Made by a program: the position numbers and the translations under genes. The notes below the pieces were generated by a model, which saw only the letters and a program-made list of their open reading frames with translations, had not been told where the DNA came from and searched no databases. A stretch of DNA of 64,000 nucleotides from a virus, in IMG/VR virus record IMGVR_UViG_3300042991_000780, positions 1-64,000 of that record, one strand, 5' to 3'. This document shows, piece after piece, positions 31,846 through 36,895 of the stretch. The first letter of the stretch is position 1. The number at the start of each line of letters is the position of its first letter.

Positions 31846-32946
31846 CTAAAGAGTAAACCTATCTTGTTTACGAGCCTTTTTACGAAGTTCGTTTACTGTT
31901 CTGAGAGCATCTGGATCAAATCTTTCCCTTTTAACGACACTCACCATATGGTTGAATTCGTTTTCGGTGATAACCTGACCAATATATCCTTCGGTCTTGA
32001 GTACATAACTCTTTGGTGCTTTACTTGAAGCAGAAGGGTTACCTTCTGTATCAAGAGTTGCTTCAAAGGTCAACTCAAGAAGTTCCTGAATCTTTTCCTG
32101 AACACTTGCGGTCATACCCTGTTTTGTTTTCTTCAATGACCTTTCAAGCAAATCAACAATATTTTCCTGATGCTTTACTTTCAACTCATTATAAGTTTCG
32201 GTAAAATTCTGCATTGTTGATCTATTTTTCAACTCACTGATAATTGCAAGTGAACCATAGCAGTCACGGATCATCAAGTCCCATACCTGTTCTGCGTAAG
32301 TGAATGAAGGGAATTTGTCTATTGCAACAATTTCACCATCAACAAGTACGATGATACCGATAAGATTGCTTGGACGTTCAAAGTGAGCAATAAACTGTTC
32401 AAGTTTCTTGTCGTACTTTTCAAAGTAAACGTTCAAGTAGTTACCAGCGTTTGACTGAGTATCCTGACCCAATTTCTGAATAGCAGGATAAATCCTATGA
32501 TATGAACTTGGCTGTCCAACAGTGTCAAACACCATTTCACGCATGGTTACTGGAAGCATACGGAACTCCTGAGTACCACGAAAATGTCCGGTCTGTCCAC
32601 CCTGAACACAACCAGCATCGTGATAAGTAACGTTACCGTACTTTTCAACGTAACCTGCTTTGGTCATACCATGATTCTGAGCACTCTGCTTGGTCATAAC
32701 AGCCATCTGGGTAGGAAGAATAACTTCCTTATCAGCCTTATTAGCAAAACTAATCTGACCGTAAGAACTGTTACCAGCCTGAACCGAAGTCAATGGATTA
32801 GCAAAACGTTCATCCAAAGAATATTCCTTGTCAGTTGTCAAACATACGATCTGCATGTTCAAAATTGACTGAACGATAATGTTACCGTTTTTGTCTTTGA
32901 CTGGACGGCAACCTTTAAGCAATTCTGTAAATTCTCTTTTATTCAT
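31846..32946 (-). CDS. ARPP-1-like protein (putative RNA-repair associated)
   Basis: This 366-residue protein shows no catalytic motif that I can name with certainty. Two stretches recall the ARPP-1 family (DUF6569-type). One is a KQ.AQNHG loop followed after ~25 residues by AGCVQGGQTGHF, where the family has KQNR and VSCVE.GRW. The other is GIIVLVDGEIVAIDKF, then a helix (YAEQVWDLMIRDCYGSLAI), where the family has a G-I-A-hydrophobic strand and a leucine-rich helix. From memory, ARPP-1 was described in bacterial RNA-repair contexts. It follows the Ro60-like gene by 11 bases and is closed by a terminator, so the two are surely co-expressed. The family assignment is tentative. Confidence 0.5.
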   Translation of the reverse strand: MNKREFTELLKGCRPVKDKNGNIIVQSILNMQIVCLTTDKEYSLDERFANPLTSVQAGNSSYGQISFANKADKEVILPTQMAVMTKQSAQNHGMTKAGYVEKYGNVTYHDAGCVQGGQTGHFRGTQEFRMLPVTMREMVFDTVGQPSSYHRIYPAIQKLGQDTQSNAGNYLNVYFEKYDKKLEQFIAHFERPSNLIGIIVLVDGEIVAIDKFPSFTYAEQVWDLMIRDCYGSLAIISELKNRSTMQNFTETYNELKVKHQENIVDLLERSLKKTKQGMTASVQEKIQELLELTFEATLDTEGNPSASSKAPKSYVLKTEGYIGQVITENEFNHMVSVVKRERFDPDALRTVNELRKKARKQDRFTL

Positions 32947-32957
32947 GATATGAAATA

Positions 32958-34592
32958 TTAAGCATTAATACTAATTTTTTTGTTCCTTTTAACAGGTGCT
33001 GCTTCAAGAGCAAGAACCTGATTTTCAAGCCACCTTTTGGTGTCAATTTCAAGCAACCTTGCGTTGATTTGTGGCTGCAAAGCAACGGGGTTATTTATTG
33101 CCATTGTGACAACTCCTGCACCAAGTTTCCTTACATTAGCACCCATTTCAGCACTCACGATTGGTGAAATTTGAAACATAGGTATATTTCTTCCGGTTTC
33201 TGCCTTCCAAATGTTGATAACTTCATTGGTAAGACCATCGTATGCGTTTTCGTATCCATCGGTTAAGATGAAGATTGCATCATATGGTTTTGAAGCATTT
33301 TCTGCTTTCAAAAGTCCAATAAATGAACTTGCCAAGTCAGTAACCTCACCATCAGTGTATTCAATACTGCAACTATTGGTTGCAGATTTGCTCAATACCC
33401 TTGCGGTAAAGTCAGCAATTGCCTTTGGAGTGTTCTTTGATTCAGCCTGATGACCACTCATTGAATTACTCATATCGACAATAATACCGATATTTGGGTA
33501 GAAGAATCCTACGATTTTCTTCTTGTCTGCAAGTTTGTCAATAGCACCCATTATTTCAGGAGTGAATTTTGTTTCATAACCTGTCTTGTAAAGTGCCAAG
33601 AAATCAGTTGCTTTTTCAAGATCAACATGTTTTTCAACACCCAACTTTGCAGTTGATTTTGTCTGACGAACCTGCTGGTTTACAGAAGTAACCTCAACAT
33701 TTTTCCTAATCAAAGCCTTTGTTGCTTCTCTCTGGATTTTTGTTGACCACATTGAATGATACTGAGGATGCTTTACGCTTGAAATCAAGCCAAGCAATAC
33801 TTCTTCAGGTACTTTCTTTGATGCAGTAATATCAGTCTTTGCTTTCTGATATTCACTCAAAAGAGGGAATACATTAGCATTAAACGTAACACCAGCATCT
33901 TTCTTGAAGATGAAAAGCATAAGTTTGAATGCTTTCATTGGATCACCATTGTAATACCTTAATATGTATTCATTCAAAATCTTCATTTCCTTTTCAGTTC
34001 CAACAACGAATTCACCAACGTTAGCAGCCTTGCCAGTAATTGAAAGCAACACAGATGTCATTTTCTTTCCATATGCGTGCCTCAAAGTATCGGCAATCTT
34101 GTTACGATATTTCATTGCATAGAATTCAAGGTTTTCCTGACCCCAGATGAAGCCAAGCATGATTTTCCTTGACCTTTCGTTGTTGATCTTTGCATTTTTC
34201 AATGAAACAAACAAACGAAGAACATATGGTAGACCACTTTCGCCAAGGTTGTTCAATGCTGAAAGCACTGCCTTATCGCTTAATCCGTTATCATACCAGT
34301 CAATTGGATTAACAATATTGCATGCTCCACCCTTTAAGGTACTTTTAAATTCATTAAACAATACCTCTGATACGAACTGACCAGTCGCACCCTTCTGAGT
34401 TGCAACTATCAACGGGAGTTCCTTTGAAAGTTTATACAAACTCTTAACCTGAGTCTGAATAGCCTTCACCTGTTCGTCACCCTTGTGGTAATAGGTAGCA
34501 CTACCTTTTGCACCACTTGCAATGGTAAGACCATCGATAAGTGACTGCTTTACCTTACTGAGCATGTTGTTTGCTAATACCAACTTTTCCAT
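32958..34592 (-). CDS. TROVE/Ro60-like RNA-binding protein with vWA domain
   Basis: This 544-residue protein has an all-helical N-terminal two thirds (residues ~1-350), with HEAT-like helices such as GLPYVLRLFVSLKNAKI and KAFKLMLFIFKK. A von Willebrand A domain follows (residues ~365-520) with an intact MIDAS start DMSNSMS (D373, S375, S377) and the later ILTDGYEN. Length and order fit Ro60/TROVE proteins, ring-shaped proteins that hold Y RNAs and misfolded RNAs. The region directly upstream contains several tRNA-like RNA elements. A host-type promoter candidate lies ~45 bases before the ATG. The vWA domain is certain; the TROVE assignment is from architecture and context. A vWA metal-chelatase-like partner protein is the main alternative. 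Confidence 0.6.
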   Translation of the reverse strand: MEKLVLANNMLSKVKQSLIDGLTIASGAKGSATYYHKGDEQVKAIQTQVKSLYKLSKELPLIVATQKGATGQFVSEVLFNEFKSTLKGGACNIVNPIDWYDNGLSDKAVLSALNNLGESGLPYVLRLFVSLKNAKINNERSRKIMLGFIWGQENLEFYAMKYRNKIADTLRHAYGKKMTSVLLSITGKAANVGEFVVGTEKEMKILNEYILRYYNGDPMKAFKLMLFIFKKDAGVTFNANVFPLLSEYQKAKTDITASKKVPEEVLLGLISSVKHPQYHSMWSTKIQREATKALIRKNVEVTSVNQQVRQTKSTAKLGVEKHVDLEKATDFLALYKTGYETKFTPEIMGAIDKLADKKKIVGFFYPNIGIIVDMSNSMSGHQAESKNTPKAIADFTARVLSKSATNSCSIEYTDGEVTDLASSFIGLLKAENASKPYDAIFILTDGYENAYDGLTNEVINIWKAETGRNIPMFQISPIVSAEMGANVRKLGAGVVTMAINNPVALQPQINARLLEIDTKRWLENQVLALEAAPVKRNKKISINA

Positions 34593-34730: not shown

Positions 34731-34847
34731 GGAATAACTCTTCTTCAAATTAAAGAAGAAGTGCGGTTGTATTGCCTGTAGTTTGTCTCCCTTCTCACAC
34801 GGGGGAGATTACATTTTTCAATTACTGTAAACACAGCCAGTTCTTCC
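34731..34847 (-). ncRNA. tRNA-like element 1 (117 nt, enlarged)
   Basis: Minus-strand ends GGAAGAACT and AGTTATTCC pair over nine positions with one mismatch, like an acceptor stem. Next to the 3' strand is a hairpin CTTCTTC/GAAGAAG with a TTTAATTT loop, in the place of the T-arm. A central hairpin TCTCCC/GGGAGA has an 11-base loop where a tRNA would have an anticodon arm. The 5' side carries the conserved GTGTTTACAGTAA module six bases after the 7-base acceptor strand. A poly-T terminator follows. No normal anticodon is evident. It is a structured RNA by inference. Confidence 0.45.
34822..34834 (-). repeat. TTACTGTAAACAC element, copy 1
   Basis: A 13-base motif, identical to the copies at 35119 and 36785, six bases from an acceptor-like 7-mer (TTCTTCC on the plus strand). 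Confidence 0.8.
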
Positions 34848-34927
34848 ATAAAAATTTATATTTTTTGAAAAAAATGCCACACACCTGTGACCAAAAAACC
34901 ATTTTTAACCGTCAAATGTTAGGATTC

Positions 34928-34997
34928 CAAGTGGGGATTTGGATTAATATTACTTGATTTATCAAATTTGTCTGCAATCCGCATATCGCTCCACTTG
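34928..34997 (-). ncRNA. Rod-like hairpin, candidate Y-RNA-like element
   Basis: Three nested helices are visible: CAAGTGG/CCACTTG at the ends, GGATT/AATCC inside, and TTGAT/ATCAA at the tip, separated by asymmetric internal loops. This 70-base rod lies in the RNA-rich segment ~335 bases upstream of the Ro60-like gene. Y RNAs are also rods closed by their ends. The hairpin could equally be a degenerate tRNA: a GCGAT/ATTGC arm with GG in its loop sits where a D-arm would be. No CDS covers it. Confidence 0.35.
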
Positions 34998-35087
34998 TAT
35001 AATTTCGGGAATAATTTAAAAGTATTTGTTGTTTTTAATCAAAGTTTAAGAGACTTCTGACTTAACCGCTTGTCTATTTTTCAATTT

Positions 35088-35144
35088 TGGCTGAAAAAGA
35101 TGGATTCGAACCACCGTATTACTGTAAACACTTTTCGTTTTCCC
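35088..35144 (-). ncRNA. 57-nt tRNA-like minigene without anticodon arm, CCA encoded
   Basis: The 3' half is a textbook tRNA end on the minus strand: T-stem GGTGG/CCATC with loop TTCGAAT, acceptor strand TTTTTCA, discriminator G and an encoded CCA. The 5' half is GGGAAAA, six bases, then the GTGTTTACAGTAA module. GGGAAAA can pair with TTTTTC at six positions (one G-T). There is no D-arm and no anticodon arm: the T-stem starts three bases after the module. It is either a tRNA deletion remnant or a deliberate acceptor/T-arm mimic. Confidence 0.5.
35119..35131 (-). repeat. TTACTGTAAACAC element, copy 2
   Basis: An exact copy of the 13-base motif, six bases from the acceptor-like 7-mer TTTTCCC (plus strand), within the 57-nt tRNA-like minigene. 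Confidence 0.8.
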
Positions 35145-35173
35145 TCAATATTTTAAAGAACTTCAATAAGTTT

Positions 35174-35253
35174 AGAAGAAATTCGTTGGTCTTGTTGTCG
35201 TTATTAGTTTGATTTCAAGTCAAATTGTTACTGTAAAAACCACCAGTTCTTCT
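35174..35253 (-). ncRNA. tRNA-Ser(UGA)-like element, degenerate T-arm
   Basis: Minus-strand ends AGAAGAA and TTCTTCT pair perfectly over seven positions. An anticodon arm TTTGA-CTTGAAA-TCAAA gives anticodon UGA (plus positions 35215-35217) with T33. The 5' side carries the module variant GTTTTTACAGTAA six bases after the acceptor strand, in place of a D-arm. The T-arm region (ACCAACGAATT) has lost its stem. Total length is 80 bases. It could be a decaying tRNA-Ser gene or a tRNA mimic. Confidence 0.4.
35228..35240 (-). repeat. TTACTGTAAAAAC element, copy 3
   Basis: One base differs from the exact motif. It is six bases from the 7-mer TTCTTCT (plus strand), the acceptor strand of the Ser-like element. 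Confidence 0.75.
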
Positions 35254-35303
35254 TTATATTTTAAATTTGTAGCAGGTTATTGTTTCAAATTTGAAATTTC
35301 AAA

Positions 35304-35320
35304 GTATTTATAATAAATAG
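35304..35320 (+). promoter_or_regulatory. Late-promoter-like motif on the plus strand
   Basis: GTATTTATAATAAATAG lies 5 bases before the ATG at 35326. It is the only plus-strand copy and it precedes the only plus-strand gene, which supports the motif being directional and functional. Confidence 0.65.
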
Positions 35321-35325
35321 TACTT

Positions 35326-36003
35326 ATGAAACCAAATTATACCGAATCTGAATTTGACACAGCAACATCTACAAGTTTATTATCTTGTTTTTGTTATAAT
35401 TGTAACACCCTTTTTAATGTAATGAAGAAAAATATTGTACAGGAATTAAAGCATAAAAGAGGAAGAATAAAATTTTGTTCAAAGAAGTGTCATGATATTT
35501 ATCAATCAAATCAAATCTCCGTTATTTGTAATAATTGCGGTAAAACATTTACTAAAATAGCATCTGAAATTAAAACAAATAATTTTTGTTCAAATTCATG
35601 CGCTGCAATATATAATAACACACATAAAACAAAAGGCAATCGTAGGTCTAAACTTGAAACATATCTTGAAACACAACTCGCTGCACAATTTCCAAATTTA
35701 GAAATATTATTCAACGATAAAAAAACAATTAATTCCGAACTGGATATTTACATACCCAGACTTCACCTTGCTTTTGAACTTAATGGTATTTTTCATTACG
35801 AACCTATCTATGGTCAAAATAAATTGAGTCAAATTCAAAATAATGATAATCGTAAATTTCAAGCCTGTTTAGAACAAGAAATTGAATTGTGTATTATTGA
35901 TGTTTCACATCAAAAATATTTTAAAGAAAACACTTCAAAAAAGTATTTAGACATTCTCATTACAATTATAAACAATAAGTCAATGAACATGTTAAACATT
36001 TAG
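35326..36003 (+). CDS. Homing-type endonuclease: zinc fingers plus Vsr/PD-(D/E)XK-like domain
   Basis: This 225-residue protein is the only gene on the plus strand. The N-terminal ~95 residues hold two treble-clef-like zinc motifs (CYNCNTLF with CSKKCH; CNNCGKTF with CSNSCA), common in phage homing enzymes. The C-terminal half has a conserved glutamate (RRSKLETYLE), then SELDIYIPRLHLAFELNG and HYEPIYG. This resembles Vsr-like EDxHD and other PD-(D/E)XK nicking or homing nucleases. It is inserted between tRNA-like elements with its own late-type promoter. It probably targets a site in this RNA cluster of related phages. Confidence 0.7.
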   Translation: MKPNYTESEFDTATSTSLLSCFCYNCNTLFNVMKKNIVQELKHKRGRIKFCSKKCHDIYQSNQISVICNNCGKTFTKIASEIKTNNFCSNSCAAIYNNTHKTKGNRRSKLETYLETQLAAQFPNLEILFNDKKTINSELDIYIPRLHLAFELNGIFHYEPIYGQNKLSQIQNNDNRKFQACLEQEIELCIIDVSHQKYFKENTSKKYLDILITIINNKSMNMLNI

Positions 36004-36059
36004 TCAATCTATCGATTGTGCAGTAATTACCACGTGCAGGTAGTTTAACTTTAATTACT

Positions 36060-36133
36060 TAGCGGGAGATGGATTCGAACCACCGACCTTAACGTTATGA
36101 GCGTCACGAGCTAACCACTGCTACTACCCCGCA
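36060..36133 (-). tRNA. tRNA-Met(CAU), initiator-like
   Basis: On the minus strand the acceptor GCGGG pairs with CCCGC plus a G-T pair. The anticodon arm is TGACG-CTCATAA-CGTTA with anticodon CAU (plus positions 36097-36099). The variable loop is AGGTC and the T-arm is GGTGG-TTCGAAT-CCATC. The 1-72 position is a T-T mismatch and the overall sequence follows bacterial initiator tRNA. The initiator's three G-C pairs in the anticodon stem are absent, and the D-arm is one base longer than usual. No CCA is encoded. Its 5' end overlaps the end of the nuclease gene at 36124 by ten bases. Confidence 0.75.
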
Positions 36134-36573
36134 ATATGTTTTTCCAATAAATCCCATGCTTCTCTATATTCATGAGATTTTGGCTTTCTCTGTCTGGATA
36201 CTTTTTCATGTAATGTTATTGAACCCGCAAATGAATTAAAAATATTAACAGGTACAACATAAAACACTTTTAGTTCTGAAATGAAAATTATTGCAAAATT
36301 AAAATCATTATTGGAATATTTTTCTCTTTTCATCACACGTCTATTTGTTTTGGTTCTTCTCACATCAATCAAATAAACTCCTTCTTCTTTTGATAACCAC
36401 GCTGACTTAACTTGTATCTTAATAAATTTATTATTAATAACAATGACCAAATCATATGGTAATCTATCACCTACCGGAATTAAAACATCCCATCCCAATT
36501 GAAGTGCTTTTAATTGTACTTCAATCTCCGCAATATCACCTTTCATTTTAGTATCCATAATCTCAAAGAACAT
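36124..36573 (-). CDS. PD-(D/E)XK endonuclease, I-Ssp6803I-like
   Basis: This 149-residue protein has the core of a small PD-(D/E)XK nuclease: KGDIAEIEVQ..ALQLGWDV, then DRLPYDLVI (D) and IKIQVKSAW (Q-x-K). It is the size (about 150 residues) of I-Ssp6803I, the intron-encoded homing endonuclease of a cyanobacterial tRNA-fMet gene. Its stop codon TAG lies inside the tRNA-Met gene, which overlaps by ten bases. The ATG at 36573 or an internal ATG (MDTKMKGDIAE) may be the true start. No intron is visible, so it would be a free-standing homing enzyme next to its likely target. Confidence 0.75.
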   Translation of the reverse strand: MFFEIMDTKMKGDIAEIEVQLKALQLGWDVLIPVGDRLPYDLVIVINNKFIKIQVKSAWLSKEEGVYLIDVRRTKTNRRVMKREKYSNNDFNFAIIFISELKVFYVVPVNIFNSFAGSITLHEKVSRQRKPKSHEYREAWDLLEKHIAG

Positions 36574-36615
36574 TTAATAAGATAAAAAAGGAAAATTTGT
36601 TTGTTATTTCTGTTA

Positions 36616-36689
36616 TAAACAATGATGGAATTGAACCACCAACATTCTGCTTGACGTGCAAACACTCTAACCAGTTGAGTTAATTGTAA
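36616..36689 (-). tRNA. tRNA-Asp(GUC)-like gene, atypical
   Basis: The minus strand has a clear D-arm (ACTC-AACTGGTTA-GAGT), an anticodon arm TTTGC-ACGTCAA-GCAGA, a five-base variable loop and T-arm GGTGG-TTCAATT-CCATC. The anticodon would be GUC, but base 33 is C rather than the near-universal U. The acceptor stem pairs at only five of seven positions (TTACAAT with ATTGTTT). A copy of the TTACAGTAA module lies directly upstream. It may be a decaying gene or a tRNA with a special role. Confidence 0.5.
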
Positions 36690-36690
36690 T

Positions 36691-36703
36691 TTACTGTAAT
36701 AAC
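36691..36703 (-). repeat. TTACTGTAATAAC element, copy 4
   Basis: A variant of the 13-base motif with one substitution at the tenth position (T for A) and one at the eleventh (A for C). It is directly upstream of the Asp-like tRNA and six bases from GTTTCCT (plus strand), which occupies the acceptor-like position. Confidence 0.7.
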
Positions 36704-36724
36704 AACACCGTTTCCTTTTTTTGT

Positions 36725-36810
36725 GGGGAGAACAGGAATCGAACCTGTAATCAATTGTGTTTAAAACAATTTGCTTTACCTTATTTACTGTAAACACTTC
36801 AAGTTCTCCC
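36725..36810 (-). tRNA. tRNA-Leu(UAA)-like gene with unusual 5' half
   Basis: Minus-strand ends GGGAGAA and TTCTCCC pair. The anticodon arm ATTGT-TTTAAAC-ACAAT gives UAA. The T-arm is CAGG-TTCGATT-CCTG. The stretch between acceptor and anticodon arm is ~33 bases instead of ~19. It holds the GTGTTTACAGTAA module, and TTTAC can pair with GTAAA further along. The variable loop is only five bases, whereas bacterial tRNA-Leu normally has a long variable arm. No CCA is encoded. It is the first RNA element after the host-type promoter at 36905. Confidence 0.55.
36785..36797 (-). repeat. TTACTGTAAACAC element, copy 5
   Basis: An exact copy of the 13-base motif inside the Leu-like tRNA, six bases from its acceptor strand (TTCTCCC on the plus strand). 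Confidence 0.8.
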
Positions 36811-36895
36811 TTACGGGAGCAATGAGATAGTATTTTCGTTATTTTGATTTGCTATCTCCCCATTTAAAAGTTTGTTCAAAGAACATTTTGTCATT

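What the first reader, a model, noticed from the sequence alone, without database searches (positions are those of the whole stretch)
34731..36810. A family of tRNA-like RNAs with a shared 13-base module beside a Ro60-like gene
Five places in 2 kb carry TTACTGTAAACAC (three exact; two variants TTACTGTAAAAAC and TTACTGTAATAAC). In all five the motif is followed, on the plus strand, by six variable bases and then a 7-mer that looks like a tRNA acceptor 5' strand (TTCTCCC, TTCTTCC, TTTTCCC, TTCTTCT, GTTTCCT). In four cases that 7-mer pairs with a downstream 3' strand. After the motif, different parts of a tRNA follow: D-loop and anticodon arm (Leu-like), anticodon arm only (Ser-like), T-arm only (57-nt form), or a full tRNA (Asp-like). 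This is not how normal tRNA genes vary. It suggests a common 5' domain replacing the D-arm, or a repeated rearrangement. Established: bacterial YrlA/Y RNAs of Ro60 proteins can mimic tRNA. Inference: these RNAs may be ligands of the adjacent TROVE-like protein, or tRNA decoys.
Basis: partly seen in the sequence, partly recalled or inferred. Interest (0 to 1): 0.88.

Follow-up and report, generated by a model that had tools for sequence, protein, structure and literature searches.

The report
Phage Y-like RNAs shaped like tRNAs
Next to a virus gene for a Ro60-like RNA-binding ring protein lies a row of small RNAs that share one conserved stem and carry a tRNA look-alike attached in three different ways (in one type the tRNA sequence is circularly shuffled), which probably makes them viral relatives of the 'Y RNAs' that Ro60 uses in cells.

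Summary
The repeat is real, but the RNAs lie on the minus strand, where the 13-mer reads GTGTTTACAGTAA. It is one strand of a two-helix stem, not a D-arm replacement. In the window the same stem carries: a circularly permuted complete tRNA-like fold (35007-35144); a tRNA with the stem inserted in its D-loop (36725-36861); a tRNA-like fold joined by its acceptor end (36586-36719); and two non-tRNA hairpins (35174-35253, 34754-34847). All types recur in related phage contigs. In 69 loci with the neighbouring protein, a loose pattern for the stem's 5' strand occurs 161 times upstream of that gene, never downstream and never on the other strand. Compensatory changes support the folds (permuted type: 39 sequences, 98.1% of pair cells paired; 213 double changes against 61 in shuffles). 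An AlphaFold model of the protein matches only Ro60/TROVE structures in its top 12 PDB hits. Bacterial Y RNA (YrlA) is likewise a circularly permuted tRNA mimic on a Ro60-binding stem. Best reading: phage Y-like RNAs that tether tRNA-shaped modules to a phage Ro60. Binding and expression are untested. New are the array, the three attachment points, and a distant relative carrying the unpermuted form. A splicing/permuted-tRNA-gene reading is less likely.

The parts
35007..35144 (-). E2 (C-type): stem 5' strand GGGAAAACGAAAAGTGTTT-ACAGTAA, T-arm, acceptor 3' strand, G-CCA-AAAT loop, acceptor 5' strand, D-arm, anticodon arm, stem 3' strand AAATACTTTTAAATTATTCCC = circularly permuted complete tRNA-like fold on a stem
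36725..36861 (-). E5 (Leu-type): tRNA fold in normal order (GGGGAGA/TCTCCCC acceptor, loop TTTAAAC) with the stem, closed by a tetraloop, inserted in the D-loop
36586..36719 (-). E4 (Asp-type): AAAGGAAACGGTGTTGTTATTACAGTA / AATAACAAAC..TTTCCTTTT stem continuing from the acceptor end of a tRNA-like fold (Rfam tRNA hit 36616-36689)
35174..35253 (-). E3 (B-type): stem capped by a small anticodon-arm-like hairpin, no other tRNA parts
34754..34847 (-). E1 type: stem capped by a G+C-rich hairpin (TCTCCC..GGGAGA)
36059..36134 (-). ordinary tRNA-Met(CAT) inside the same cluster; used as an in-cluster control (U33 kept in 43 of 43 relatives)
32958..34592 (-). Ro60/TROVE-vWA-like protein, 544 aa, first gene downstream of the RNA array; MIDAS-type DxSxS at 373-377
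36785..36797 (-). 13-mer copy in E5 (GTGTTTACAGTAA)
36691..36703 (-). 13-mer variant in E4 (GTTATTACAGTAA); its helix-2 partner changes with it to AATAAC
35228..35240 (-). 13-mer variant in E3 (GTTTTTACAGTAA); partner strand AAGACC
35119..35131 (-). 13-mer copy in E2; helix-2 partner AAATAC
34822..34834 (-). 13-mer copy in E1; helix-2 partner AATAC

Best explanation
The five elements are one family of small phage RNAs built from two modules. Module one is a common stem: helix 1, an asymmetric internal loop with GAAC/AAAC on its 5' side, helix 2 of 8-11 pairs, then the conserved single strand ACAGTAA. Module two is a variable head: a circularly permuted tRNA, a tRNA entered through its D-loop, a tRNA joined by its acceptor end, or a simple hairpin. 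They are most likely Y-RNA-like partners of the Ro60/TROVE protein encoded just downstream. The stem would dock on the phage Ro60 ring, and the tRNA-shaped head would recruit or block a factor that recognises tRNA (for example a nuclease such as PNPase, or a tRNA-processing or tRNA-attacking enzyme). Shown by computation: the family, its folds, its strict location upstream of the Ro60-like gene, and the Ro60-like predicted fold of the protein. Inferred: binding, expression and the role of the head. Not established: which factor the head recognises.
For: Linkage: a loose 5'-strand pattern occurs 161 times in 396 kb upstream of the Ro60-like gene in 69 loci (68 with at least one), 0 times in 423 kb downstream and 0 times on the other strand; motif contigs without a detected Ro60-like gene end within 96-1844 bases of the last element in the stretch held. 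Folds: C-type 98.1% of cells paired against 80.4 in shuffles, 213 double changes against 61, all 7 acceptor and 5 anticodon-stem pairs covary, and RNAalifold recovers nearly the same structure unaided; Leu-type 98.0% and 93 double changes against 22; Asp-type 94.2% and 59 against 17; B-type 99.0%, recovered unaided; E1 95.6%. Protein: top 12 PDB fold matches are all Ro60/TROVE, including D. radiodurans Rsr 2nvo and a Thermus phage Ro60 9l5y; an earlier, poorer model gave Ro60/TROVE in its top 10. Mimic rather than decoding tRNA: U33 kept in only 26 of 39 C-types against 43 of 43 tRNA-Met of the same loci; four C-types have the acceptor closed by a 5-nt loop. Depth: the stem and a tRNA-like head also lie upstream of Ro60-like genes 48% (L227) and 27.5% identical (LR756500). 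Same topology as YrlA: Rfam RF02553 order T-arm, acceptor, D-arm; YrlA 6CU1 is a circular permutation of tRNA (PMC11472068); YrlA is a Ro60(Rsr)-binding stem plus a tRNA-like domain (PMC8394870).
Against: No expression or binding data. None of the elements reaches the Rfam YrlA threshold, and the one weak YrlA match (22.9 bits, gathering score 69) joins two neighbouring elements. Sequence profiles of the protein find neither Pfam TROVE nor any PDB chain, so the Ro60 assignment rests on a predicted fold (pTM 0.72, TM-scores 0.31-0.45). Among close relatives, synteny alone could keep RNAs and gene together. An NCCA-like end is kept in 28 of 39 C-types, which a pure mimic does not need. U33 is T in most Leu-type elements.
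Confidence: 0.78

Rival explanations
1. The shared stem is a small intron in phage tRNA genes: it is cut out by an endonuclease and the exons ligated, giving ordinary tRNAs; the C-type would be a circularly permuted tRNA gene spliced through a circle.
For: Leu-type genes and the C-type equivalent in L227 keep normal tRNA order and ends with the stem inserted; removing the stem leaves plausible tRNA bodies; NCCA follows the acceptor in 28 of 39 C-types; in the Leu-type the 5' acceptor strand is also complementary to a segment of the insert.
Against: Two of the five types have no tRNA exons at all; U33 is lost in a third of C-types while tRNA-Met of the same loci keeps it; several acceptors are closed by tiny loops; Leu-type anticodons UAA/UGA sit on bodies without a long variable arm; no RtcB ligase in the 95-kb record, which may be incomplete; the insert is about 60 nt, too small for a self-splicing group I or II intron (established knowledge).
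Confidence: 0.12
2. Free tRNA decoys: the tRNA-like heads sponge a host tRNA nuclease or other anti-phage factor, and the stem is only a stabiliser without a role in Ro60 binding.
For: Anticodon loops vary widely between phages (24 different loops in 39 C-types) while stems, T-loop and D-loop are kept; several tRNA-like copies per phage. A competitive-inhibitor role has been suggested for YrlA (PMC7790460).
Against: The stem is the most conserved and common part, also present in types without a tRNA head, and it tracks the Ro60-like gene. Not exclusive with Ro60 binding.
Confidence: 0.09
3. Debris: tRNA genes broken by recombination, homing endonucleases or misassembly, with the 13-mer as a repeated junction.
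For: HNH-like and PDDEXK endonuclease genes lie between the elements; fragments of tRNA follow the motif at different points.
Against: Strong compensatory change in all types, and the same types in dozens of independent assemblies.
Confidence: 0.01

Closest known systems
Bacterial Y RNA YrlA (Rfam RF02553; Ro60/Rsr partner, PDB 6CU1)
   Same: Encoded beside a Ro60 relative; two-strand stem with internal loops formed by both RNA ends; tRNA-like head with T-arm, acceptor, D-arm order, a circular permutation of tRNA; similar size (C-type 135-159 nt here, 90-150 nt reported).
   Different: No match to the YrlA model; the stem leaves from the variable region and a complete anticodon arm is kept; several paralogues per genome; other paralogues attach the tRNA by the D-loop or acceptor end, or lack it.
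Phage Ro60/TROVE proteins (jumbo phages, PMC7824862; Listeria phage CKA15, PMC12282133; Vibrio phage pir03, PMC7765460; Thermus phage phiLo, PDB 9l5y)
   Same: A phage-encoded Ro60-like protein, in CKA15 with highly transcribed possible Y RNAs nearby.
   Different: The papers read here give no defined RNA partner structure; here the likely partners are defined and covariation-supported.
Circularly permuted tRNA genes (red algae, green algae, Thermofilum; from my own knowledge)
   Same: 3' half encoded before the 5' half, NCCA between.
   Different: A bulge-helix-bulge junction was not looked for in detail; anticodon loops are not constrained as in decoding tRNAs; some acceptors are closed by a hairpin loop.
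Two-piece (permuted) tmRNA (from my own knowledge)
   Same: Permuted tRNA-like gene order.
   Different: No tmRNA found by ARAGORN in the window.

Membership tests
Bacterial Y RNA (YrlA-like) | Encoded next to a Ro60 orthologue | tested here: met
   161 upstream, 0 downstream, 0 reverse in 69 loci; protein fold is Ro60-like
Bacterial Y RNA (YrlA-like) | Stem formed by the 5' and 3' ends, with internal loops | tested here: met
   C, Asp, B and E1 types; not met by the Leu-type, whose ends are at the acceptor
Bacterial Y RNA (YrlA-like) | tRNA-like head, circularly permuted (T-arm, acceptor, D-arm) | tested here: met
   C-type, 39 sequences with covariation
Bacterial Y RNA (YrlA-like) | Match to the curated covariance model RF02553 | tested here: not met
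   Best score 22.9 bits against 69, and across two elements; none in five divergent loci. I therefore call them Y-RNA-like, not YrlA
Bacterial Y RNA (YrlA-like) | Binds Ro60 | not testable with these tools
   Needs biochemistry
Ro60/TROVE | HEAT-repeat ring plus vWA domain fold | tested here: met
   Top 12 PDB fold matches are Ro60/TROVE, E 3.8e-6 to 3.8e-3, prob 1.00; first non-Ro60 match is weaker
Ro60/TROVE | Match to sequence families | tested here: not met
   No Pfam or PHROGs family, no PDB chain by profile; the membership claim therefore rests on the fold
Ro60/TROVE | MIDAS motif of the vWA domain | tested here: met
   D373, S375, S377 and D445 invariant in 29 sequences
Functional (decoding) tRNA | U33 and normal anticodon loop | tested here: not met
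   C-type U33 in 26 of 39; tRNA-Met control 43 of 43; mostly kept in the Leu-type
Circularly permuted, spliced tRNA gene | Ligated junction producing a linear mature tRNA | not testable with these tools
   Needs RNA sequencing; some C-types with closed acceptors speak against

The most novel reading that the evidence does not exclude
The stem is a new class of small excisable element in phage tRNA genes, and the C-type genes are circularly permuted tRNA genes of a phage that are spliced, possibly with the Ro60-like protein as chaperone, into working tRNAs.
Probability: 0.12. Interest if true: 0.92.

Novelty: new variant of a known kind. Interest (0 to 1): 0.75.

Why it matters
Phage Ro60 proteins are known, but to my knowledge and in the papers found here their RNA partners had no defined, covariation-supported structure. 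Here one phage lineage displays the same tRNA shape on one stem in three ways, and a distant relative (L227) has the unpermuted form of the RNA that is circularly permuted elsewhere. This suggests that what is selected is a tRNA shape held on a Ro60-binding stem, and it gives testable RNAs for the open question of what Ro60-Y RNA particles do with tRNA mimics.

Tried and rejected
Reading the motif on the plus strand as a 5' domain (rejected: all relatives, pairings and the Ro60-like gene are on the minus strand). D-arm replacement (rejected: a D-arm is present in the C and Asp types; the stem sits elsewhere). A search of bacterial genomes for the motif gave 12 exact hits, all in unrelated sequence, mostly one conserved Chryseobacterium region. 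Relatives in named phage records: only one record, unannotated. Rfam search found only tRNAs plus a chance-like YrlA match. RtcB in the same record: none. Literature search for permuted or split tRNAs in phages found no report. The sigma-70 promoter scan was at chance level. One wrong paper was fetched by mistake.
Full report
What was checked. The 13-mer occurs three times exactly and twice as variants in 34822-36797; these are the only five in the 95,172-base virus record and all lie on the minus strand. A two-mismatch scan of the window is not remarkable by itself (10 hits, 4.3 expected). What makes it real is conservation: a pattern of the surrounding 5' strand found further virus contigs carrying several copies each, and the loci that encode a relative of the neighbouring protein (59-82% identical; down to 48%) carry the same RNAs upstream of it.

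Anatomy on the minus strand. The 13-mer is the inner end of a stem with two helices. In E2 the 5' strand GGGAAAACGAAAAGTGTTT pairs with AAATACTTTTAAATTATTCCC about 100 nt downstream; E3, E1, E4 and E5 have the same layout with different letters. The hexamer next to ACAGTAA differs between types and its partner differs with it: GTGTTT with AAATAC, GTTATT with AATAAC, GGTTTT with AAGACC.

Heads. E2 (C-type): after ACAGTAA come a T-arm, the acceptor 3' strand, G-CCA-AAAT, the acceptor 5' strand, a D-arm and an anticodon arm, then the 3' strand of the stem. This is a complete tRNA in circularly permuted order with the stem in the variable region. E5 (Leu-type): a tRNA in normal order with the stem, closed by a tetraloop, in the D-loop. 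E4 (Asp-type): tRNA arms in normal order with the stem continuing from the acceptor. E3 and E1: the stem capped by a small hairpin.

Statistics. On MAFFT alignments with named structures: C-type 39 sequences, 35 pairs, 98.1% of cells paired (shuffles 80.4 +/- 0.7), 213 cells changed on both sides (61), no shuffle reaching these values, and sliding the partners by one column drops pairing to 52-55%; RNAalifold alone finds nearly the same structure, with one extra pair next to the acceptor stem. Leu-type 98.0%, 93 against 22. Asp-type 94.2%, 59 against 17. B-type 99.0%, and RNAalifold recovers the same stem. E1 95.6% on only 10 sequences. Caveat: sequences were collected with patterns fixing part of the 5' strand and the outer 3' end (GGGAA/TTCCC and ATAC in C; TTCTTC in B and E1), so helix 1 and part of helix 2 are favoured by construction, and the C-type parser required partly paired T and acceptor stems. 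The covariation inside acceptor, T, D and anticodon stems is far beyond that requirement: an element's own acceptor strands average 6.95 of 7 pairs, strands taken from different elements 4.5. Single-sequence folding energies of the window elements are only moderately better than shuffles (z from -0.96 to -3.54), so the case rests on covariation, not on energy.

Linkage. In 69 loci a loose 5'-strand pattern occurs 161 times in the 396 kb upstream of the Ro60-like gene, 0 times in the 423 kb downstream, 0 times on the opposite strand. The other motif contigs hold only 96-1844 bases after the last element (L007 and L011, which were also printed, are contigs that do carry the gene). In a search of one genome per bacterial and archaeal species, the exact pattern gave 12 hits, none in such an element.

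Protein. Sequence profiles find nothing. An AlphaFold model from 29 relatives (pLDDT 77, pTM 0.72) matches Ro60 or TROVE structures in all of its first 12 PDB hits, including animal Ro60, D. radiodurans Rsr (2nvo) and the Ro60 of a Thermus phage (9l5y). TM-scores are modest (0.31-0.45). MIDAS residues are invariant.

Depth and a natural circular permutation. L227, from a 373,759-base contig with a 48% identical protein, has a Leu-type, an Asp-type and a C-type equivalent. The C-type equivalent is not permuted: the 5' acceptor, D-arm and anticodon arm come first, the stem sits closed in the variable region, and the T-arm follows. Its 64-nt insert folds into the same helix 2, internal loop and helix 1. 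The 462-kb phage LR756500, with a 27.5% identical protein, has an Asp-type element with GGAGAAC and TTACAG about 1.5 kb upstream of the gene. The same shape is therefore kept with different chain ends.

Function. U33 is kept in 26 of 39 C-types against 43 of 43 tRNA-Met genes of the same loci, and four acceptors are closed by 5-nt loops, so C-types are tRNA look-alikes rather than decoding tRNAs. Known bacterial YrlA consists of a Ro60-binding stem and a circularly permuted tRNA-like head that in the RYPER complex binds PNPase (PMC8394870, PMC11472068); Rfam's YrlA model shows the T-arm, acceptor, D-arm order. From my own knowledge, likely Y RNAs near Ro60 were predicted in many bacteria and phages (Chen et al. 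2014, cited in PMC7790460 and PMC12282133; the paper itself is not held). I therefore read the family as phage Y-like RNAs. They do not match the YrlA model, so I do not file them as YrlA. The intron reading is kept as a rival because Leu-types and L227 have normal tRNA ends and 28 of 39 C-types keep NCCA.

What remains inferred: expression, Ro60 binding, the identity of the factor recognised by the head, and the host. A Bacteroidota-like promoter motif upstream of the array suggests such a host, but this was read by eye only.

Noticed in passing
window minus strand about 34720-34660: Just upstream of the Ro60-like start a conserved GGGTGGGGACT-hairpin-ACCCG followed by T8 looks like a terminator or attenuator; also seen in L014/L168 and L166.
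   Followed up: no
A5 alignment; window 36861-36820 minus strand: In Leu-type elements the 5' acceptor strand GAGATAG is also complementary to CTATCTC inside the inserted stem (90.8% paired, only three double changes); a possible alternative fold.
   Followed up: partly
L175, L183, L186, L189, L195, L213: A repeated hairpin TTCCCCGTTGTCCCTGTGGCAACACAAACTTCGGGGTAA lies between the tRNA-like elements of several phages.
   Followed up: no
L146, L148, L192, L199, L202: Another recurring hairpin around GTCAAGCCTCTTGCGAAAGCAAAGTAACTG between elements.
   Followed up: no
window 35326-36003 (+) and 36124-36573 (-): Two nuclease-like genes sit inside the RNA array: HNH/homing-endonuclease-like (PHROGs) and PD-(D/E)XK (PF11645).
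   Followed up: partly
window 31846-32946 (-): The gene after the Ro60-like one carries an ARPP-1 domain (PF20208).
   Followed up: no
window minus strand about 36938-36904: TTGCACAATTAAAAAAGGTGTTTTATATTTGC upstream of the array resembles the Bacteroidota promoter (TTTG ... TAnnTTTG); similar in L014 and L100. Read by eye only.
   Followed up: no
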